Assembly: GCA_903905455.1 (NCBI GenBank)
Contig: CAIVGN010000046.1
Span: forward strand, 62,001 to 126,000
Reading direction: 5' to 3'
Length of the DNA: 64,000 nt
Origin: an uncultured Archangium sp.
GTDB taxonomy: Bacteria; Myxococcota; Myxococcia; Myxococcales; Myxococcaceae
In this document: positions 14,757 through 24,901 of the stretch, piece by piece
Layout of the letters: every line of letters begins with the position of its first letter
Numbering within the stretch: the stretch's first letter is position 1
Notes under the pieces: model-generated
Database searches by the model: none
Seen by the model: the letters and a program-made list of their open reading frames with translations, nothing else
Told to the model about the DNA's origin: nothing
Position numbers and translations under genes: made by a program

Positions 14757-17700
14757 ATGGCCCGCTCGTTGAGCGCCCGGCTGGGGCCCGCGGCGGCCTT
14801 CCAGTTCTGCTTCATCGGCGCGATCGCGATGCTCAAGCCGGGCGCCAACGCGCTCACGCTCTCTCGCTTCAACTCCAGCGCCTTGCCGTGGCTGTACATG
14901 GCGGCGGCCTTCATCGCCGCGGCGCTGGCGCTGCTGGGCGGCGAGGGCACGCGGCGCAGGAACCCCGGCTACCTCGCGCTCTTCGGGGCGCTGTGCGCGG
15001 CGGCCCTGGCGGTGGGCTTGTGGCTGCGCCTGCCGATGGTGGCGCTCGCCGCGTACCTGTTCTCGGAGGTCTTCGCGACGCAGGTCTCGCTCTCGTTCTG
15101 GGGCGCGATGGGCGAGGCCTTCGATGCCCGGGAGGCCCGCCGCGCGTTCAGCTGGATCAACGGCGTGGGCATGTCGGGGGCGATCGTCGGTGGCTTCCTC
15201 GCGCAGGTGCTGGCGCGCACGGCCGGCGCGGGGGCGCTGCTGGTGGGGGGCGCGTCGTTCCTGCTGATCGGCGTGGTCGCGTGGCGCTTTCACCGCGTCG
15301 ACGTGGACGTGGGGGCCGGGCGCGCGAAGCCCTCGGGGCGCACAGGCTGGCGCGAGGTGCTGTCCAAGCCCTACACGCAGTGGATGGGGGCGGTGGTGCT
15401 GGGCCTCTCGTTGCTCCAGCAGTTGACCGACTTCGTCTTTCGCCAACGCGCGGCCGAGCACCTCGTCGAGGCCGACATGGCCGACCTCTTCGCCTCGCAC
15501 CAGCTGTGGACGGGCGTGTTCTGCGTGATCTTCCAGTTCGCCCTGGCCGAGGTGCTGCTGCGCAAGCTGGGCATCCTCAAGTACGCGGCGCTGGTGCCGA
15601 TCACCCTCGCGGCGCTGACCATCGGCACCTGGCTCATCCCCTCGGTGTGGAGCGCGTGGGCGCTCAAGGTCTTCGAGGCCGCGTCGAGCTGGTCGCTGAT
15701 GCCGGTGGCCATGCAGTTGATGTACGCGCCGCTGCCCGACGACCTGCGCGACGGTGCGCGGCGGGTGATCGACGGCCTGGTGCGCAAGAGCGGCATGGCC
15801 ATCGCCGGGGTGCTGATCCTCGGGCTGGCCACGGCGGTGGGCGTGGACGGGGTGCTGATGCTGGTGCTCCTGGTGTGCGCCGGCGTGGGTTGGGCGCTGT
15901 GGAAGATCCGCCCGCGGTACGTGGAGGCCGTGCACGCGCGCGTGGCGGGCTTCGACGCGGCGGGCACCTTCGACGGCGAGGAGCGGTTGCTGACCGAGGC
16001 GATCAAGTCGAGCTCGCCGGAGCACGCGTTGCGCGCGGCCGACCTGCTGGAGCGCACGGGGCTGATGCAGGAGGCGCACGTGCGCTTGCTGCTCGCGCAC
16101 CCCCAGGAGCGCGTGCAGACCCGGGGCGTGGCGCTGGCCGAGTCGCTGAAGCTCACCGCGCTGGCCCGGCAGCTCGAGGCGTTGATCGTGCTCGGATCGC
16201 GACGGCCGCGAGACTCGGCGATCTGGGCGCTGGCGAAGCTCTCGGCCGAGCGGGCCCGGGTGGTGCTGCCCCCGCTGCTCAAGGAGACCGACATCGGCGT
16301 GCTCACTTCGGCCATCGGCGGCCTCCTGTCGTTGCCGGGCCCCGAAGACGCGTCGGCGCGGCAGATGCTCGACGCGCTGCTGGCCCGCGGGGTCGACGCG
16401 CCGCCCGCAGAGCGTCGCGAGGTCGCCCGGTTGGTCGGTCGGCTGGGCAAGCCGGAGCTGGCGCGGTTCCTCATCGCCTTTCTCGACGACAGCGACGTGT
16501 CGGTGCGCCGGGTGGCGATCGAGGCCACGGGGCAGGGGCGCTTCATCGAGCTGGCGCCGCGGCTGCTGCGGTTCCTCTCGTGGCGTGACGATCGCCGGGC
16601 GGCCCGCGAGTCGCTGGCGAGCCTGGGTGACGCGGCGGTGGGCCTCATCGCCGCGACGCTCGAAGATCGGAGCCGGGCGCGCACCTTGCGGCTGCAGTTG
16701 CCGCGCGTGCTGCGGTTGATCGCCACCCAGTCGGCCTTCGACGCGCTGCTCTTCTCGGGCCCGCAGGACGAACCGGCGCTGCACTACCGGGTGGGCATCG
16801 CGCTCGCCCAGTTGCACGACGAGCACCCCGAGTTCACCGTCGACGCGCAGCGCCAGCTCGAGGCGCTCCGGCGCCGCCGTGACGCCTCGGTGGCGCTGAT
16901 CGAGCCGTACCGCGACTGCCGGGCGGCGCTGGGCGAAGACTCGTTGCTGACGCGCGTGCTGTGCGACCGGCTCGACCAGTCCATGGAGCTCAGCTTCTGG
17001 CTGCTGGGGCTGCGGCACGACGCCCGGGCGTTGCGGCGCGCGCACGCGCAGTTGCTGGGCACCGACGGGCGTCGCCGGGCCTGGGCGCTCGAGCTGCTCG
17101 ACAACGTGCTCACCCTCGAGGAGCGCGAGCTCGTGTCGCACCACGTCGACGCGCACCACCGCTCGTTGCCCTTCGGTGCCGCATCGCGCATGCGCGATCA
17201 CCTGCTGGTGCTCAGCGCCTCTGACGACTTCATCGTGAAGGCCTGTGCGCGCACCGTCGGGCGGCGCCTCGGGCTGTGGACCCCGCTTCACCGGGAGGAC
17301 GAAATGAACGAGACCATCGTGAAGCGGCTCTTTGCGCTCGAGGGCGTGGAGATCTTCGCGCGCAGCGACGTGGACGACGTGGCCGCGGTGGCCGCCGTGG
17401 CGAAGGAGCAGTCGTTCGCCAAGGGGGCGCGCGTGTATTCCGAGGGAGACCCGGGCGACGCGCTCTACGTGATCGTCGAGGGCTCGATGGCCGCCCGCCG
17501 CGACGGCGAGACGGTGCTGACCATGAAGGCCAAGGAGTCGTTCGGCGAGACCTCGCTGTTCGACGGCGCCCCGCGCATCAACGAGGTGATCGCCACCTCG
17601 GACAGCCGCACCCTGGTGATCGACCGCCGCGACTTCCTGGACCTGCTGGCCGATCGCCCCGAGCTGTTGGCCGGCATGTTCCGGGTGCTTTCGCGGCAGC

Positions 17701-17783
17701 TCAAGTCGATGGTGGTCGAGGTGACCAACCGCCGGTCCACCACGGGGGAGCTGCCGGCCGTCGGTGGTCCGCCCGTTCGATGA
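14757..17783 (+). CDS. MFS/nucleotide-transporter-like membrane protein fused to HEAT repeats and a cyclic-nucleotide-binding domain
   Basis: 1008 residues in three parts. Residues 1-390 hold about 10-12 hydrophobic helices resembling major-facilitator or ATP/ADP-translocase-like carriers (FQFCFIGAIAMLKPGANAL at the start). Residues 410-840 are alpha-helical HEAT-type repeats (LLKETDIGVLTSAIGGLLSL, FLDDSDVSVRRVAIEA). Residues 860-1005 are a cNMP-binding domain with a phosphate cassette FGETSLFDGAPRINEV that keeps the arginine. Such combinations are seen in delta-group genomes and are often annotated as Npt1/Npt2-type transporters; transport activity is not shown by sequence. The stop overlaps the nadK ATG. 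Confidence 0.85.
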   Translation: MARSLSARLGPAAAFQFCFIGAIAMLKPGANALTLSRFNSSALPWLYMAAAFIAAALALLGGEGTRRRNPGYLALFGALCAAALAVGLWLRLPMVALAAYLFSEVFATQVSLSFWGAMGEAFDAREARRAFSWINGVGMSGAIVGGFLAQVLARTAGAGALLVGGASFLLIGVVAWRFHRVDVDVGAGRAKPSGRTGWREVLSKPYTQWMGAVVLGLSLLQQLTDFVFRQRAAEHLVEADMADLFASHQLWTGVFCVIFQFALAEVLLRKLGILKYAALVPITLAALTIGTWLIPSVWSAWALKVFEAASSWSLMPVAMQLMYAPLPDDLRDGARRVIDGLVRKSGMAIAGVLILGLATAVGVDGVLMLVLLVCAGVGWALWKIRPRYVEAVHARVAGFDAAGTFDGEERLLTEAIKSSSPEHALRAADLLERTGLMQEAHVRLLLAHPQERVQTRGVALAESLKLTALARQLEALIVLGSRRPRDSAIWALAKLSAERARVVLPPLLKETDIGVLTSAIGGLLSLPGPEDASARQMLDALLARGVDAPPAERREVARLVGRLGKPELARFLIAFLDDSDVSVRRVAIEATGQGRFIELAPRLLRFLSWRDDRRAARESLASLGDAAVGLIAATLEDRSRARTLRLQLPRVLRLIATQSAFDALLFSGPQDEPALHYRVGIALAQLHDEHPEFTVDAQRQLEALRRRRDASVALIEPYRDCRAALGEDSLLTRVLCDRLDQSMELSFWLLGLRHDARALRRAHAQLLGTDGRRRAWALELLDNVLTLEERELVSHHVDAHHRSLPFGAASRMRDHLLVLSASDDFIVKACARTVGRRLGLWTPLHREDEMNETIVKRLFALEGVEIFARSDVDDVAAVAAVAKEQSFAKGARVYSEGDPGDALYVIVEGSMAARRDGETVLTMKAKESFGETSLFDGAPRINEVIATSDSRTLVIDRRDFLDLLADRPELLAGMFRVLSRQLKSMVVEVTNRRSTTGELPAVGGPPVR

Positions 17784-18652: not shown

Positions 18653-19591
18653 TCAGTAGGGCAGGGTGGCGCTGCCGCCGGCGACGAAGGCGAAGGCGCC
18701 GAGATCCGCGGTGCCGCCGCGCAGCCGGGCACGCCCGTTGACGTCCTTGCTCGCCGCGCTGAAGGCCGTGACGTCTGCCGCGCCCACGGCCGGAGACTTC
18801 TCGGAGAGCAGGTAGGGCTCGGTGCCCGACATCACGAACAGCGCCTCGCCGAAGTGGTTGCCCACGCCGCCGAGCGCCTGGCACCAGGCTGGGAGCAGCG
18901 AGCGCGTGATGGTCAGCGCCGCGGGGAGCTTCGGGGAGTTGTAGACGCAGGCCGGGCCCTCGGTGCGCTCGGAGACCACGCAGTGGGTGAGGCTCACCGT
19001 GGGAGCGCGGGTGGTGGTGCCCGAAAGGTGCATCGCGCTGCCCGCGGCGCCGTCACCGACGACCTTGTTGTCGGCGAGGGTGCAGCCGATGAGCGTGGCC
19101 TTCGCGCCTTCCTTCACCTTCACGCCGCCGCCTTCGACCGCCGCGTTCTGGATCACCGTCGAGTCTTCGAGCCGCAGCTCGCCGACCCCATCGACGAGGA
19201 TCGCGCCGCCCTGGCGACCGGTGTTCGCCTCGAAGCGACAGCGGGTCACGGTGGCCTTGCCGTCGCGCACGTAGAGGCCGCCGCCGCCGTACTGGGGGGC
19301 CTGGTTGAAGCGCAGGGTGCAGTCGAGGAGTTCGAGCTGGCCGCCGAGGTGGCAGATGGCGCCGCCCGCCTCGGGCGCGCTGCCTCCGACGAGGGTGAAG
19401 CCCGAGAGCCGCACCAGGCCGTCGGTGGTGATGCGCACCACCGAGCCCGAGTGCACCCCGTCGAGCACCACCTGGCCCATGGCCAGCAGCGTGACGGGCT
19501 TCGAGAGCTCGAGGTTGACGGTGTAACGCCCCGCGGGGACCTTCACGGTCTCGTGGGGCTGGGCATCCTGGACGGCCTGGGCGAGATCCAT
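18653..19591 (-). CDS. Right-handed beta-helix repeat protein
   Basis: 312 residues with repeated short strands of the pectate-lyase-like beta-helix type: VNLELSKPVTLLAMGQVVLDG, GGGGLYVRDGKATVTRCRFE, GGAILVDGVGELRLEDSTV, GGGVKVKEGAKATLIGCTL. It ends like choice-of-anchor proteins (LRGGTADLGAFAF). No signal peptide or catalytic residues are visible; it starts MDLAQAVQDAQPHETVKVPAG. It is the last gene of a three-gene minus-strand unit, 9 nt after the second calpain-like protease, so may be a structural partner or substrate of those proteases (inference). Confidence 0.8.
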   Translation of the reverse strand: MDLAQAVQDAQPHETVKVPAGRYTVNLELSKPVTLLAMGQVVLDGVHSGSVVRITTDGLVRLSGFTLVGGSAPEAGGAICHLGGQLELLDCTLRFNQAPQYGGGGLYVRDGKATVTRCRFEANTGRQGGAILVDGVGELRLEDSTVIQNAAVEGGGVKVKEGAKATLIGCTLADNKVVGDGAAGSAMHLSGTTTRAPTVSLTHCVVSERTEGPACVYNSPKLPAALTITRSLLPAWCQALGGVGNHFGEALFVMSGTEPYLLSEKSPAVGAADVTAFSAASKDVNGRARLRGGTADLGAFAFVAGGSATLPY

Positions 19592-19600
19592 CGGGGAGAC

Positions 19601-20662
19601 TCAGTTACCGACGTCGACGCCCTGGTACAGCTTGGCGAAGTCATCGAGCTTCATCTTGAAGATGCCGTCGTTCTTGCCATCGCTGCCCGGCTCGGTGCTG
19701 CCCCAGGGGTTGCGCAGCTGCACGTACTTCGTGCCCGCCTCTTCGACGGCGCCCAGCACGGTGTAGACGTGCCACGCGTAGACGCCGGAGCCGCTGTAGT
19801 CGACGCCCGAGTCCTTGCCGTGGGTGGGCGCGGTCATCGCGCGGTGGTTGGTGGCGCCGGACTGGATGGTGCGGAACATGGTGTTCGCGTCGGTGTACTT
19901 GTTCGACGAGTAGCTGGTGGCCTTGCCGGTGAGGCCCGAGACGACGTCGCCGGAGAAGCCGCCGTTGCCGATCTTCTCGTAGTCGCCGCCCTTCCACTGC
20001 GTGTACGCCTTCTCGAGGAGCCCCACCCACAGTTCCTTGCCGTCACGGGACTTCGCGTAGCGCGCGCCGCCGAAGCTGCCCTGGGGCAGGTCACCGTCGA
20101 TGGTGATGTCGACCGGCTTCATCGCTCCGCTCGGCTGCTTCTCGTAGAAGCGCACGGTGTACGTGCCGTCGGCGTTCTCCTTGATGGCGTTCTTGATGGT
20201 CTCGGGGTTCGCCTGGGCCACGGCCGACAGGGCGCCGACGAGGTAGCAGTCGCCGATCGAGCCTTGCACCACGTCATCGAAGTTCACGCCGTCGACGAAG
20301 AGCTTCCCGTCCTGCACCGGCTTCCACGTGGTGTCGGTGGTGTGCTTGGTGAGCACCGTGGGGTCGGCGATCTGCCGCGGGCCGGTGGAGGTGGTCGTCG
20401 GCGCCGCGGGCACGCTGGGCGTCGTGGTGGTGGGCGCCGCGGGCGTGGTGAGCTTCACCGTGCCCAGGAAGGCCTGGAGATCGCGCTTGGCGACCGAGCC
20501 GAACTTGTCGGCGTGCTGGTCGAGGAGTCCCTGGAGCTGGGCCTTGGTCTCGGCGGTGATGGGCTGCGACTTCGCGGTGCTGATCAGCGTCTGCACTTCG
20601 CTGATGGAGACCTTGTTGTCGCGCAGGACGCGGGCGATCGAGTCGGAGATCTTGGTGGGCAT
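19601..20662 (-). CDS. Calpain-like (C2) cysteine protease B
   Basis: 353 residues. Residues 1-70 form a helical domain shared with the neighbouring paralogue (MPTK then IARVLRDNKVSISEVQTLIS). A Thr/Pro/Ala linker (71-97) follows, then a calpain-type papain fold with the triad Cys139 (QGSIGDCYLVGAL), His298 (VYAWHVYTV) and Asn318 (LRNPWG). The calpain calcium-binding C2-like domains are absent. No signal peptide is seen. The start ATG has GAGGAA about 10 nt upstream and lies 34 nt after the stop of copy A. Target proteins are unknown. Confidence 0.88.
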   Translation of the reverse strand: MPTKISDSIARVLRDNKVSISEVQTLISTAKSQPITAETKAQLQGLLDQHADKFGSVAKRDLQAFLGTVKLTTPAAPTTTTPSVPAAPTTTSTGPRQIADPTVLTKHTTDTTWKPVQDGKLFVDGVNFDDVVQGSIGDCYLVGALSAVAQANPETIKNAIKENADGTYTVRFYEKQPSGAMKPVDITIDGDLPQGSFGGARYAKSRDGKELWVGLLEKAYTQWKGGDYEKIGNGGFSGDVVSGLTGKATSYSSNKYTDANTMFRTIQSGATNHRAMTAPTHGKDSGVDYSGSGVYAWHVYTVLGAVEEAGTKYVQLRNPWGSTEPGSDGKNDGIFKMKLDDFAKLYQGVDVGN

Positions 20663-20696
20663 GGGCGGGGGTTCCTCGAGGCGAAGGCTGCGGAGT

Positions 20697-21692
20697 TTAG
20701 CCGCCGATGTTGACTGAGTTGTAGAGCTTCATGAAGTCGTCGAGCTTCATCTTGAAGACGCCGTCGTCCTTGCCATCGCTGCCCGGTTCGGTGCGACCCC
20801 AGGGGTTGCGCAGCTGGACGTACTTCACGCCGGCCTCTTCGCTGGTGCCGAGCATCGAGTAGGCGTGCCACGCGAAGACGCCGGTGCCGGTGTAGTCGAC
20901 GCCCGAGTCCTTGCCATGGGTGCCCGCGGTGACGGGCTTGTGGTCGGCGATGGCGGCGGTCATCTGCGAGAAGAGGCGCTCGGCGGGCGTGTAGGTGGTG
21001 GAGGTGAAGGTGGGCGACCTCCCGGTGAGCGCCTCGAAGACGTCGCCGGAGTTGCCGCCGTTGCCGATGGCCTCGTAGCCGCCCTTCCACTGCGCGTAGG
21101 CCTTCTCGAGCATCGAGACCCAGGCTTCCTTCGGGTCGCGGGCCTTGCCGTACTTCGCGGTGGGACCGAACTCGATGGGGAGATCGCTGTCGACCTTCAC
21201 CGTGACCTTCGTGTACTCGCCGTCGTCACCCAGCTCGAAGAAGCGCACGTCCCAGGTGCCGTCGTGGTTGTCGGTGATCGCCTGCTCGATGGCCGCGGGG
21301 TTCTGCTGCGCGAGCGAGGCAAAGGCACTGACCATGTAACAGTTGGCGATCGAGCCCTGCACCACGTCGTCGAAGTTGATGCCGTCGACGTAGAGCGAGC
21401 CGCCCGAGCCGACCGGGTTCCACGCCACCGACGTCGCGTGCTTGGTGAGCACCTGGGGATCGGCGAGATCGACGGTGGTGCTGGTGGACGAGAGGAAGGT
21501 CTCGAGGGCGCCGCGGGCCAGGGGCTCGAAGGCGTCGCGGTGCTGCGTGAGGAGCGCCTTCAGCTCGGCGCTCAGCTCCGGGGTGAACTTCTTCTCGGCC
21601 TTCGCGGCGCTGATCAACTCCGTGACGTCTTGCTGGCTGACCTTGCGATCGAGGAGCGCGCTGGTGATTCGTTCGCCGAGCTTCGTGGGCAT
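20697..21692 (-). CDS. Calpain-like (C2) cysteine protease A
   Basis: 331 residues, a paralogue of the next gene in the same operon. It shares the helical N-terminal domain (MPTKLGERITSALLDRKVSQ) but has almost no linker before the protease domain. Triad: Cys118 (GSIANCYMVSAF), His276 (VFAWHAYSM), Asn296 (LRNPWG). The conserved GDCY of calpains is ANCY here, which may change the oxyanion region. ATG 21692 was chosen because the paralogue starts with the same MPTK and GGAAGG lies upstream; an in-frame extension to 21734 exists. No signal peptide or calcium-binding EF hands are seen. Confidence 0.87.
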   Translation of the reverse strand: MPTKLGERITSALLDRKVSQQDVTELISAAKAEKKFTPELSAELKALLTQHRDAFEPLARGALETFLSSTSTTVDLADPQVLTKHATSVAWNPVGSGGSLYVDGINFDDVVQGSIANCYMVSAFASLAQQNPAAIEQAITDNHDGTWDVRFFELGDDGEYTKVTVKVDSDLPIEFGPTAKYGKARDPKEAWVSMLEKAYAQWKGGYEAIGNGGNSGDVFEALTGRSPTFTSTTYTPAERLFSQMTAAIADHKPVTAGTHGKDSGVDYTGTGVFAWHAYSMLGTSEEAGVKYVQLRNPWGRTEPGSDGKDDGVFKMKLDDFMKLYNSVNIGG

Positions 21693-21793: not shown

Positions 21794-24700
21794 ATGCGTC
21801 GCGCCCTGATCTTGAGTGTTTTCGGAATGTTGTACGCGGGCTGTCCCGGTGCGCCGAGCAACCCCCCGGCCGAGCGCTGTGCCGGGGTGCGCTGCACGGG
21901 CACCGCGTTGTGCAACGCCACGACCGGGTTGTGTGAGGCCCAGGTGGTCGACGCGGGCCGGGTCGACGCTGGCGCCCCCGACGCGGGCTTTGATGCCGGA
22001 ACGCGGGACGATGCGGGGATCGATGCGGGCGCGATCGACGCGGGGCCGGTGGACGCAGGCGTCGCCGATGCGGGGATCCCCGACGCGGGCGAGCCGGTCG
22101 ACGCGGGCTGCAGCTCCGATCTCGACTGCGGGGGCGCCCTCTCTCGCTGCGACCCGTCCACCCGGGACTGTGTCGAGTGCTTCTCGAACGCCCACTGCTT
22201 CTCGTCGGTGGTCCCGGTGTGCGATCTGCGCGTGCACCAGTGCGTGGGGTGCGTCGCGGGCTCTGATTGCGCCAACCCCACGCCGGTCTGCGATCAACAG
22301 CAGTGCCTGCCGTGCAACACGAGCGCGGAGTGTGGCCTGGGCCGGGAGTGCAGCCCCTTCACCTTCGAGTGCGTGCCGCTCAACGACACCTGCGCCACGG
22401 CGAAGGCGATCCTCGCGACGGGCACGGGCAACTACTCGGTCACCGCCGAGCCGGCGCAGGGCCTCGACGACACCGCCGGCAGCTGCAACGTCGCCGGCCC
22501 CGAGCTGGTCTATTCCTTCACCACCTCCGCGCCCCAGTTGCTCACGGTCTCGGTGACCGCGTTGACCGGCAGCGCGGCCCGGCCGGTGGTCTACCTCCGC
22601 GCGGCGTGCGCCACCCCGGAGCTCGCCTGCGATGCCCCGGTCAGCGGCGCCGCGGCCCTGACGGTGAGCTCGCTGCCCGCCGGCAGCTACTTCCTCTTCG
22701 TGGAGTCGGCCAACGCTTCGCCCGGCCGGGTGGCGCTCAACATCTCGCTGCAGGCGCCGCCGATGGGCGCGTCGAACGACACCTGCGCCACGGCCATCGC
22801 CCTGGGCGCGAATGGGGCCCAGCTCACCCGCTCGGTAGCGGTGGGCAACACCACGCTGGCGACGAACAACAACAGCACGGAGCCCGCCTGCAGCCCCTCG
22901 GCGCGCGGCGGCCCCGACGTGGTCTACAGCTACACGCTCGCCGCGCAGAGCACCGTGGCCATCGTGGCCCGGCCCATCTCGGGCTCGACGTTGCACCCCG
23001 TGGTGTCGGTGCGGGCTCCCTGCGAGCCGCCGAACACCGAGCTCGCCTGCCAGGCCGCGTCGGCCGCCGCCGCGGTGTCGGTGAACCTCCCGGGCCAGCA
23101 GCCGGGCACGTACTTCATCACCGTCGACTCGGCCGACGGCACCACCGGCGCCTTCCAGCTCGAGCTCGACGCCGTGCCCACCATCGCCAACGACACCTGC
23201 GCGAGCCCGGTCGCGCTCACGTTCTCGGGCAGCACCGCGACGTCGACCGGCGACACCACGTGGGCGACCAACGGCAACGTCACCGGCGACGCCTCGCCCA
23301 GCTGCAGTGACTCGGCCCGGGGCACGGGGCACGACGTCCTGTTCTCGTTCACGCTCGCCCAGGCGCAGGACGTCACCGTTTCAGTGACCCCGACGGGCGC
23401 CAGCCCCACCTTCCAGCCGGTGGTCTCGGTGCGGTCGACGACGTGCACCAGCGCGGCCGCGGCCAGCGAGCGCGGGTGCGTGAGCCCCCTTTCGGCCACC
23501 GAGGGGCGCCTGACCCTGGTGAACCAGCCCTCGGGCACCTACTTCGTGTGGGTCGACTCGGCGCAGGACACCAGCGGCCCGTTCCAACTCGAGGTGGTGA
23601 CGGGGCCCGCGACGCCGCCCCCGGCCAACGACTCGTGCGCGGCGCCGGAGGTGCTGACCTTCACCGGCGGAGTGGCCGCGGTGACCTCGTCGACCCAGCA
23701 GGCGGCCAACGACAACTACCCGGGAGACGTGTCGCCGACCTGCAACGCCAGCGCGAAGCAGAGCGGCCGCGACGTGGTCTACCAGTTCACCCTGGCCCAA
23801 CCGCAGGACGTGGCCCTCGAGCTGCTGCCCACCGCGGGCTCGGCGCTCATCCCCACGCTCTACGTGCGGCGCGCCAACTGCACGAGCCAGCTCCTCTCGG
23901 ACGAAGTGGTGTGCCTGGCGGCGGTGGGTGGGGTGCACAGCCTGCTCACGGCGCTGCCCGCGGGGACCTACTTCCTCTTCGTCGACTCGTCGGCGGGCAC
24001 CTCGGGCGGTTTCACCGCGCGGGTGACGCTCTCGGCCCCCACGGTGGCACCTGCGAACGACGCGTGTGCGGGTGCACAAGCGCTGGTGTTCACCAGCAAC
24101 ACGGCCACCGTCACCGGCACCACCTTCGGGGCGAGCAACTCGAACTCGCCGACGGACAACGCGCCGGCCTGCGGCACCGACTTCATTCCGCGGCGCTTCG
24201 GGCGCGATCTCGTCTACGCGTACACGCTGGGCGGCGCGCAAGACGTGGACATCACCGTCACTCCGGGGCCGACGAGCCTGCTGGTGCCCACGCTCTACGT
24301 GCGCGCCCCCAACCAGTGCGCGAGCTTCAGCGCGGGCTTCGAATTGGCCTGCGTCGCGGAAAGCACGCCGCGGCCGCTGCGCATCTACCTCCCCAACCAG
24401 GTCGCGGGGACCTACTTCCTCTTCGTCGACGCGAACTCCTACGACACGGGTGACTTCACGCTGTCGGTCACGAAACGGCCCGCGACGCTGCCCCCGGCCA
24501 ACGACACCTGCACCGCGCCCACGCCCATCACGGCGGGCCCCACGGGCGTGAGCGGAGACACCTCGGTGGCCACCGACAGCTATTCGGCGCTGACGTACCC
24601 GGCGGCCTGCCGGCGGTTGTTCTTCGACGGGCGCGATCTCGTCTACCAGTACACCGCGACGAGCACGGGCACGGTGACGGCCACCGTCTCACCCGAGGCC

Positions 24701-24901
24701 ACCTTCAACCCCGCGTTGCTGCTGCTGCAAAACGGCTGTGGTGCGGCGCAGTGCGTGCGCTTCGCAGACGCAGCAGGCGCGGGCGTGCCGGAGTCGTTCT
24801 CGTTCCCGGTGACGCAGGGCCAGACCTACTTCCTCGTCGTGGACAGCGCGAACCGCGAGCAGCCCAACGCCTTCGGTCACTTCACCCTGACCGTTCAGTA
24901 G
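21794..24901 (+). CDS. Large lipoprotein with Asp-Ala-Gly linker and six NDTCA repeats
   Basis: 1035 residues. A signal peptide ends in YAGC (lipobox). A Cys-rich segment follows (CAGVRCTGTALC), then a linker of VDAGAPDAG-type repeats (about 55-105), then Cys-rich modules to about 195. The rest is six repeats of 110-140 residues, each opening with NDTCA, NDSCA, NDACA or NDTCT and ending with a strand such as AGSYFLFVESA or GTYFLFVDS. These resemble bacterial pre-peptidase C-terminal-like beta domains. The protein is probably surface exposed on the outer membrane. No enzyme motif is seen. Its 3' end overlaps the convergent slyX gene by seven bases. Confidence 0.88.
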   Translation: MRRALILSVFGMLYAGCPGAPSNPPAERCAGVRCTGTALCNATTGLCEAQVVDAGRVDAGAPDAGFDAGTRDDAGIDAGAIDAGPVDAGVADAGIPDAGEPVDAGCSSDLDCGGALSRCDPSTRDCVECFSNAHCFSSVVPVCDLRVHQCVGCVAGSDCANPTPVCDQQQCLPCNTSAECGLGRECSPFTFECVPLNDTCATAKAILATGTGNYSVTAEPAQGLDDTAGSCNVAGPELVYSFTTSAPQLLTVSVTALTGSAARPVVYLRAACATPELACDAPVSGAAALTVSSLPAGSYFLFVESANASPGRVALNISLQAPPMGASNDTCATAIALGANGAQLTRSVAVGNTTLATNNNSTEPACSPSARGGPDVVYSYTLAAQSTVAIVARPISGSTLHPVVSVRAPCEPPNTELACQAASAAAAVSVNLPGQQPGTYFITVDSADGTTGAFQLELDAVPTIANDTCASPVALTFSGSTATSTGDTTWATNGNVTGDASPSCSDSARGTGHDVLFSFTLAQAQDVTVSVTPTGASPTFQPVVSVRSTTCTSAAAASERGCVSPLSATEGRLTLVNQPSGTYFVWVDSAQDTSGPFQLEVVTGPATPPPANDSCAAPEVLTFTGGVAAVTSSTQQAANDNYPGDVSPTCNASAKQSGRDVVYQFTLAQPQDVALELLPTAGSALIPTLYVRRANCTSQLLSDEVVCLAAVGGVHSLLTALPAGTYFLFVDSSAGTSGGFTARVTLSAPTVAPANDACAGAQALVFTSNTATVTGTTFGASNSNSPTDNAPACGTDFIPRRFGRDLVYAYTLGGAQDVDITVTPGPTSLLVPTLYVRAPNQCASFSAGFELACVAESTPRPLRIYLPNQVAGTYFLFVDANSYDTGDFTLSVTKRPATLPPANDTCTAPTPITAGPTGVSGDTSVATDSYSALTYPAACRRLFFDGRDLVYQYTATSTGTVTATVSPEATFNPALLLLQNGCGAAQCVRFADAAGAGVPESFSFPVTQGQTYFLVVDSANREQPNAFGHFTLTVQ

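What the first reader, a model, noticed from the sequence alone, without database searches (positions are those of the whole stretch)
18653..21692. Tandem calpain-like proteases with shared helical N-terminus and a beta-helix partner
Two paralogous C2-type cysteine proteases, each with an intact Cys-His-Asn triad and the same N-terminal helical domain but no signal peptide, are encoded with a beta-helix protein. Copy A has ANCY where calpains have GDCY, and only copy B has a Thr/Pro linker. The arrangement could be an effector or delivery system (N-terminal domain as export or docking tag) or a cell-lysis module; I know of no described function.
Basis: partly seen in the sequence, partly recalled or inferred. 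Interest (0 to 1): 0.65.

Follow-up and report, generated by a model that had tools for sequence, protein, structure and literature searches.

The report
Leaderless calpain pair sharing modular tag
A myxobacterium carries two neighbouring calpain-type protease genes whose shared front end also sits on many other, unrelated enzymes in related bacteria, which suggests a common docking or delivery tag; their small beta-helix partner gene stays beside them in many species.

Summary
In detail: window 18653-21692 (minus strand) encodes calpain A (331 aa), calpain B (353 aa) and a beta-helix protein (312 aa). The Cys-His-Asn triad is intact; both calpains share a ~70-residue helical N-terminus; neither shows a signal peptide. 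ANCY is not special: that position is N in 11 and D in 8 of 19 relatives. (1) The N-terminus is a mobile module: 119 matches in 25 of 96 family genomes, fused to calpains, a caspase-like His-Cys family, TGase-elicitor enzymes, peptidoglycan-binding proteins, a zincin, a pyroglutamyl-peptidase-like protein and a subtilase; also in 16 of 116 sampled genomes of the phylum. (2) The beta-helix gene adjoins the calpain in 13 of 17 A/B-type loci, even where other neighbours differ, and beside 5 calpains without a detected module. A third calpain of this genome lies beside FtsH-ternary-system genes. Type VI sheath genes are absent from 22 of 25 module-bearing genomes; Phage_sheath_1 is over cut-off in none of 22. 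Best reading: the N-terminus is a recruitment or delivery tag for leaderless hydrolases, the beta-helix a dedicated partner. Route, target and activity are not shown.

The parts
20697..21692 (-). Calpain A: N-terminal module plus Peptidase_C2 core, 331 aa; catalytic C118, H276, N296
21483..21692 (-). N-terminal four-helix module of A, residues 1-70
   Evidence: Profile A1 and models
20787..21398 (-). Peptidase_C2 core match of A, residues 99-302
19601..20662 (-). Calpain B: module, Thr/Pro linker, Peptidase_C2 core, 353 aa; catalytic C139, H298, N318
20456..20662 (-). N-terminal module of B, residues 1-69
20378..20455 (-). Thr/Pro-rich linker of B, about residues 70-95
   Evidence: read by eye
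19691..20314 (-). Peptidase_C2 core match of B, residues 117-324
18653..19591 (-). Beta-helix partner protein, 312 aa, no leader seen

Best explanation
A and B are hydrolytic effector enzymes. Their N-terminal ~70-residue four-helix module is a recruitment tag, used across Myxococcota to bring many unrelated leaderless hydrolases to one common machine or site; the calpain core does the cutting, probably with calcium at site 1. The beta-helix protein, made from the same operon, is the calpain's own partner: an inhibitor or immunity protein, or a scaffold. Shown: active-site conservation, module mobility, conserved beta-helix pairing, and absence of type VI and Phage_sheath_1-type sheaths in most module-bearing genomes. 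Inferred: that the module docks, that the cargo leaves the cytoplasm, calcium use, and the partner's role. I put export or delivery slightly ahead of purely intracellular recruitment.
For: The module is on many unrelated C-termini (119 matches in 25 of 96 genomes; clusters of 25, 21, 19, 6, 4, 2, 2, 2 and six singles among 87 ORFs; Pfam on 20 chosen proteins) and in 16 of 116 sampled phylum genomes. None of 87 module proteins has a strongly hydrophobic start. Several cargo families suit work outside the cytoplasm: PG_binding_1, TGase_elicitor, Peptidase_S8, ATLF. Beta-helix neighbour in 13 of 17 A/B-type loci and 19 of 80 loci in all, also where none of six tested flanking genes is retained. 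Triad invariant in 37 of 37, calcium site 1 intact in A and B.
Against: No export machine was identified. Module genes in this genome are scattered and not beside secretion genes that I could recognise by eye. In five genomes of the genus a module calpain adjoins FtsH-ternary-type genes. Four of 17 A/B-type loci lack the beta-helix gene nearby. Cytosolic functions exist for some cargo families (Peptidase_C15). Starts of the 87 ORFs were set at the Met nearest the module, so leaders further upstream could be missed.
Confidence: 0.45

Rival explanations
1. Intracellular conflict effectors. The module works like the effector-associated domains described for ternary conflict systems: it recruits proteases to an NTPase hub that unleashes them inside the cell after invasion, and the beta-helix protein restrains them.
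For: A third module-bearing calpain adjoins a Fer4_12/radical-SAM gene in 5 of 5 fetched genomes of the genus and a full run with fvmX6, fvmX5, FtsH and fvmX3-analog in two. Effector-associated domains are small, mostly helical, N- or C-terminal, and coupled to many effectors (PMC8195603, passages).
Against: No module was seen on an NTPase among the 87 ORFs by cluster and representative Pfam scans. In 7 of 7 group-C loci of other genera these fvm genes are not near. The window pair has no such neighbours. PADLOC has no hit to A, B or the beta-helix protein. Cargo such as peptidoglycan-binding proteins fits poorly.
Confidence: 0.25
2. The module is a local regulator: an inhibitory prodomain or a calcium- or metal-sensing cap of each enzyme, without any shared machine.
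For: The modelled topology (four helices, bridges near residues 18 and 56) resembles a degenerate pair of helix-loop-helix units; Asp15 and Glu/Asp22 are conserved in A2; weak DUF533/TerB matches.
Against: A prodomain fitted to one active site would hardly suit calpain, caspase-like, TGase, zincin, subtilase and peptidoglycan-binding proteins alike; canonical EF-hand positions 1 and 3 are not acidic in A or B (my reading). Some calpains of the family lack a detected module.
Confidence: 0.2
3. The beta-helix protein is a substrate or co-delivered surface binder, not a regulator of the calpain.
For: It matches surface-type families: POMP repeat over cut-off, choice-of-anchor Q below it. Co-transcription would suit a joint product.
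Against: No leader in P0003; strong conservation (56% mean column identity over 15 rows); a mere substrate need not stay in the operon across rearranged neighbourhoods.
Confidence: 0.15

Closest known systems
Calpain family (MEROPS C2, PF00648), including bacterial calpains (Rawlings 2015, PMC4631099, passages read)
   Same: Catalytic core, triad, calcium site 1 residues by alignment
   Different: Short proteins ending after the core, with an N-terminal module and a beta-helix operon partner; the term 'Myxo' has no match in that paper's text
Effector-associated domains of ternary conflict systems (Kaur 2020, PMC7159879; PMC8195603; passages read)
   Same: Small helical N-terminal domain repeated on many unrelated effectors; one module calpain beside FtsH-ternary-type genes
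   Different: No copy seen on a hub NTPase, link to fvm genes in one genus only, and 'calpain' has no match in the main text of either paper
Polymorphic toxins / marker-domain secreted effectors (recalled, not from a call)
   Same: One leader module, many enzyme C-termini, a partner gene downstream of the calpain
   Different: Type VI sheath missing from 22 of 25 module genomes; no carrier identified; most other module genes have no recognised partner gene
DUF533/TerB-like domains
   Same: Weak sequence matches, one just over cut-off (L090, 29.9 against 29.6 bits)
   Different: Most modules score below cut-off or not at all

Membership tests
Peptidase family C2 (calpain core) | Pfam PF00648 match over cut-off | tested here: met
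   118.7 and 105.8 bits, cut-off 23.8
Peptidase family C2 (calpain core) | Cys-His-Asn triad | tested here: met
   Present in A and B, invariant in 37 of 37 relatives
Peptidase family C2 (calpain core) | Proteolytic activity, calcium dependence | not testable with these tools
   Only residues were checked: site 1 intact, site 2 lacks one acidic ligand
Classical calpain | C-terminal C2-like and penta-EF-hand domains | tested here: not met
   A and B end after the core; no such Pfam hits at E up to 1
FtsH ternary conflict system | FtsH and fvm genes next to the gene | tested here: not met
   Not seen around the window pair in the gene calls (by eye); found beside the group-C calpain in G010 and G011
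Effector-associated domain (EAD) | Match to a known EAD model | tested here: inconclusive
   Only L112 hits EAD9, E 0.024, below cut-off
Effector-associated domain (EAD) | A copy fused to the hub NTPase or ternary component | tested here: inconclusive
   None recognised among 87 module ORFs; not every ORF was scanned on its own
Type VI effector | Type VI sheath (VipB) in the genome | tested here: not met
   Absent from G000 and from 22 of 25 module genomes
Contractile injection (eCIS) cargo | Phage_sheath_1 sheath in the genome | tested here: not met
   0 of 22 over cut-off; one sub-threshold match in G044
TerB/DUF533 domain | Pfam gathering score, structural match | tested here: inconclusive
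   One module just over cut-off (L090), others below; structure search without significant rows

The most novel reading that the evidence does not exclude
The module is an undescribed phylum-wide address tag of Myxococcota: a folded N-terminal domain that loads chemically unrelated leaderless hydrolases onto one unknown delivery or assembly machine, abundant in Myxococcaceae lineages that lack type VI secretion, with the calpain held safe by a beta-helix protein as a new kind of protease inhibitor.
Probability: 0.25. Interest if true: 0.85.

Novelty: new variant of a known kind. Interest (0 to 1): 0.6.

Why it matters
If the module is a tag, one sequence profile would reveal the hydrolytic effector set of many uncultured myxobacteria and make its carrier findable. 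A beta-helix protein that controls a calpain would be a new regulator type for this protease family. Calpain beside FtsH-ternary genes would add an effector class to those systems.

Tried and rejected
Type VI secretion as the route: VipB is present in 65 of 96 family genomes but in only 3 (G018, G020, G040, one module each) of the 25 with the module. Contractile injection: no Phage_sheath_1 over cut-off in 22 genomes. Type III gate (FHIPEP): in 21 of 22 module genomes but also in 34 of 35 comparison genomes, three of which (G018, G020, G040) carry one module each, so it does not discriminate; a third gate copy is frequent in module genomes but missing from G043 and G044. N-module structure search: no Foldseek row at E <= 0.001 and VIA Z at most 5.8, uninformative for a small helical model built without an alignment. 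Caspase-like family against PDB sequences: no relevant hit. Viral contigs: 5 distant calpain relatives only. ANCY as a functional mark of copy A: rejected. Group-C calpain as a fixed part of FtsH-ternary systems: seen in one genus only. Paper searches gave no description of this module or of a calpain/beta-helix operon that I could see in the listings; the library lacks most subscription journals.

Full report
What is there. Three minus-strand genes fill 18653-21692: calpain A (20697-21692), calpain B (19601-20662) and a beta-helix protein (18653-19591), spaced 34 and 9 bp. Both calpains exceed the PF00648 cut-off, keep Cys, His, Asn and the oxyanion Gln, and A is modelled confidently (pLDDT 89.3, pTM 0.85) with calpain cores as best PDB matches. 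A and B are 51% identical. In a tree of 78 calpain cores, A groups with the first copy in L203 (G009) and the single copy in L210, while B groups with L201, L202 and the second copy in L203; so A and B are old paralogues, and the tandem was seen only in G000 and G009 among the A/B-type family loci examined.

The residue before the catalytic Cys is N in 11 and D in 8 of 19 relatives, so ANCY is ordinary here. Calcium site 1 (residues as named by Rawlings 2015, PMC4631099, read in passages) is intact in A and B by alignment; site 2 lacks one acidic ligand. Rawlings reports that bacterial calpains lack calcium sites, some keeping only site 1.

The N-terminal module. A 10-row profile (A1) gave 119 matches in 25 of 96 family genomes (14 of 26 genera) at E <= 0.01. 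I fetched 60 stretches around chosen places besides loci from searches; these held 87 distinct module ORFs, which cluster by C-terminus as 25, 21, 19, 6, 4, 2, 2, 2 and six singles. The first cluster is calpain. The second has an invariant His and Cys in a caspase-like pattern in 12 of 12 aligned but no Pfam hit for its one tested member and no PDB relative, so 'caspase-like' is my reading. The third has TGase_elicitor in 4 of 6 tested members; L106 and L159 gave no hit. Others carry PG_binding_1, ATLF, Peptidase_C15 or Peptidase_S8. A 16-row profile found the module in 16 of 116 sampled Myxococcota genomes, in several families; the proteins read there include calpains, a caspase-like and a TGase-type one. 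In this genome the other module genes are scattered singletons. None of the 87 has a strongly hydrophobic start, with the caveat that starts were set at the Met nearest the module. The module is modelled as four helices with bridges near residues 18 and 56. Sequence hints point to TerB/DUF533 (L090 just over cut-off), but the fold search was uninformative.

The beta-helix partner. Homologues lie next to the calpain in 13 of 15 A/B-type family loci; in 13 of 17 A/B-type loci among the 80 kept of 219 relatives found in the species-genome collection; and in 19 of those 80 loci in all. The other six are L263, where the calpain is a fragment, and five loci whose calpain has no detected module (L220, L226, L233, L278, L279). 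All are on the same strand; the gene is downstream in 18 and upstream in L278. The two counts overlap, since many named records are the same genomes as the unnamed ones. In genus g26 none of six tested flanking genes is retained, yet the beta-helix gene is. It has no paralogue in this genome at E <= 0.001. The tree needs four changes of the partner label, and starred branches force only one. This argues for a dedicated functional pair that does not depend on the module. One of the 15 aligned beta-helix rows has a more hydrophobic start (2.47), so absence of a leader is not proved for all.

A third calpain and conflict systems. The group-C calpain (L058 here) has the same module. In all five genomes of this genus where it was fetched it is next to a Fer4_12/radical-SAM gene; in G010 and G011 it heads a run with fvmX6, fvmX5, FtsH and fvmX3-analog. 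In 7 of 7 loci of other genera none of these genes is near. Kaur 2020 (PMC7159879; passages and section 21) names NEFF1 and a radical-SAM enzyme as effectors of the simpler FtsH systems; 'calpain' does not occur in its main text. PMC8195603 (passages) describes small, mostly helical effector-associated domains as recruiters.

Which machine. VipB is in 65 of 96 family genomes but in only 3 of the 25 with the module; the pattern follows lineages, so it excludes a route rather than proving a link. Phage_sheath_1 is over cut-off in 0 of 22. Type III export-gate proteins are nearly universal in both sets. No machine is thus identified. In 4 of 29 distinct caspase-like loci a calpain gene adjoins on the same strand; many of these loci are cut by contig or fetch ends.

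Judgement. The calpains are members of family C2. The broader novelty is a mobile N-terminal module on many leaderless hydrolases and a conserved calpain/beta-helix pair. I favour a recruitment or delivery tag (0.45 for the whole reading) over intracellular conflict recruitment (0.25) and local regulation (0.2). Nothing here shows proteolysis, calcium use, export or the partner's role.

Noticed in passing
window 14757-17783 (+): A 1008-residue protein with a cNMP-binding domain over cut-off and HEAT_2 and TLC ATP/ADP-transporter matches just under theirs: possibly a nucleotide transporter fused to a cyclic-nucleotide sensor.
   Followed up: partly
window 21794-24901 (+): Divergent lipoprotein-like gene upstream of calpain A with PPC and GBD_T9SS_assoc matches; its homologue lies by the calpain in L044, L045, L046 and L054 but was not found in the g26 loci.
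   Followed up: partly
L144, L139, L131, L128, L119, L122: Proteins of one genus (g26) with several module-like units and a long low-complexity tail; they could be scaffolds for the tagged enzymes.
   Followed up: no
G000, G009, G010, G011, G046, G049, G052, G087, G089-G092, G095; also G050, G093: A third FHIPEP export-gate copy is common in module-bearing genomes, against one or two in most comparison genomes; flagellar or type III was not decided.
   Followed up: partly
L226:5155-8100 (-), L220:6988-8928 (-): ClpB/ClpA-like AAA genes lie beyond the calpain/beta-helix pairs of two related species, on the other strand.
   Followed up: no
L262:4740-6635 (+): A distant calpain relative with a lipoprotein-like start, so some relatives appear to be surface proteins (by eye).
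   Followed up: no
L105, L109, L222, L031: A module-bearing caspase-like gene directly upstream of a long-form calpain on the same strand, 115-220 bp apart, in 4 of 29 distinct caspase-like loci.
   Followed up: partly
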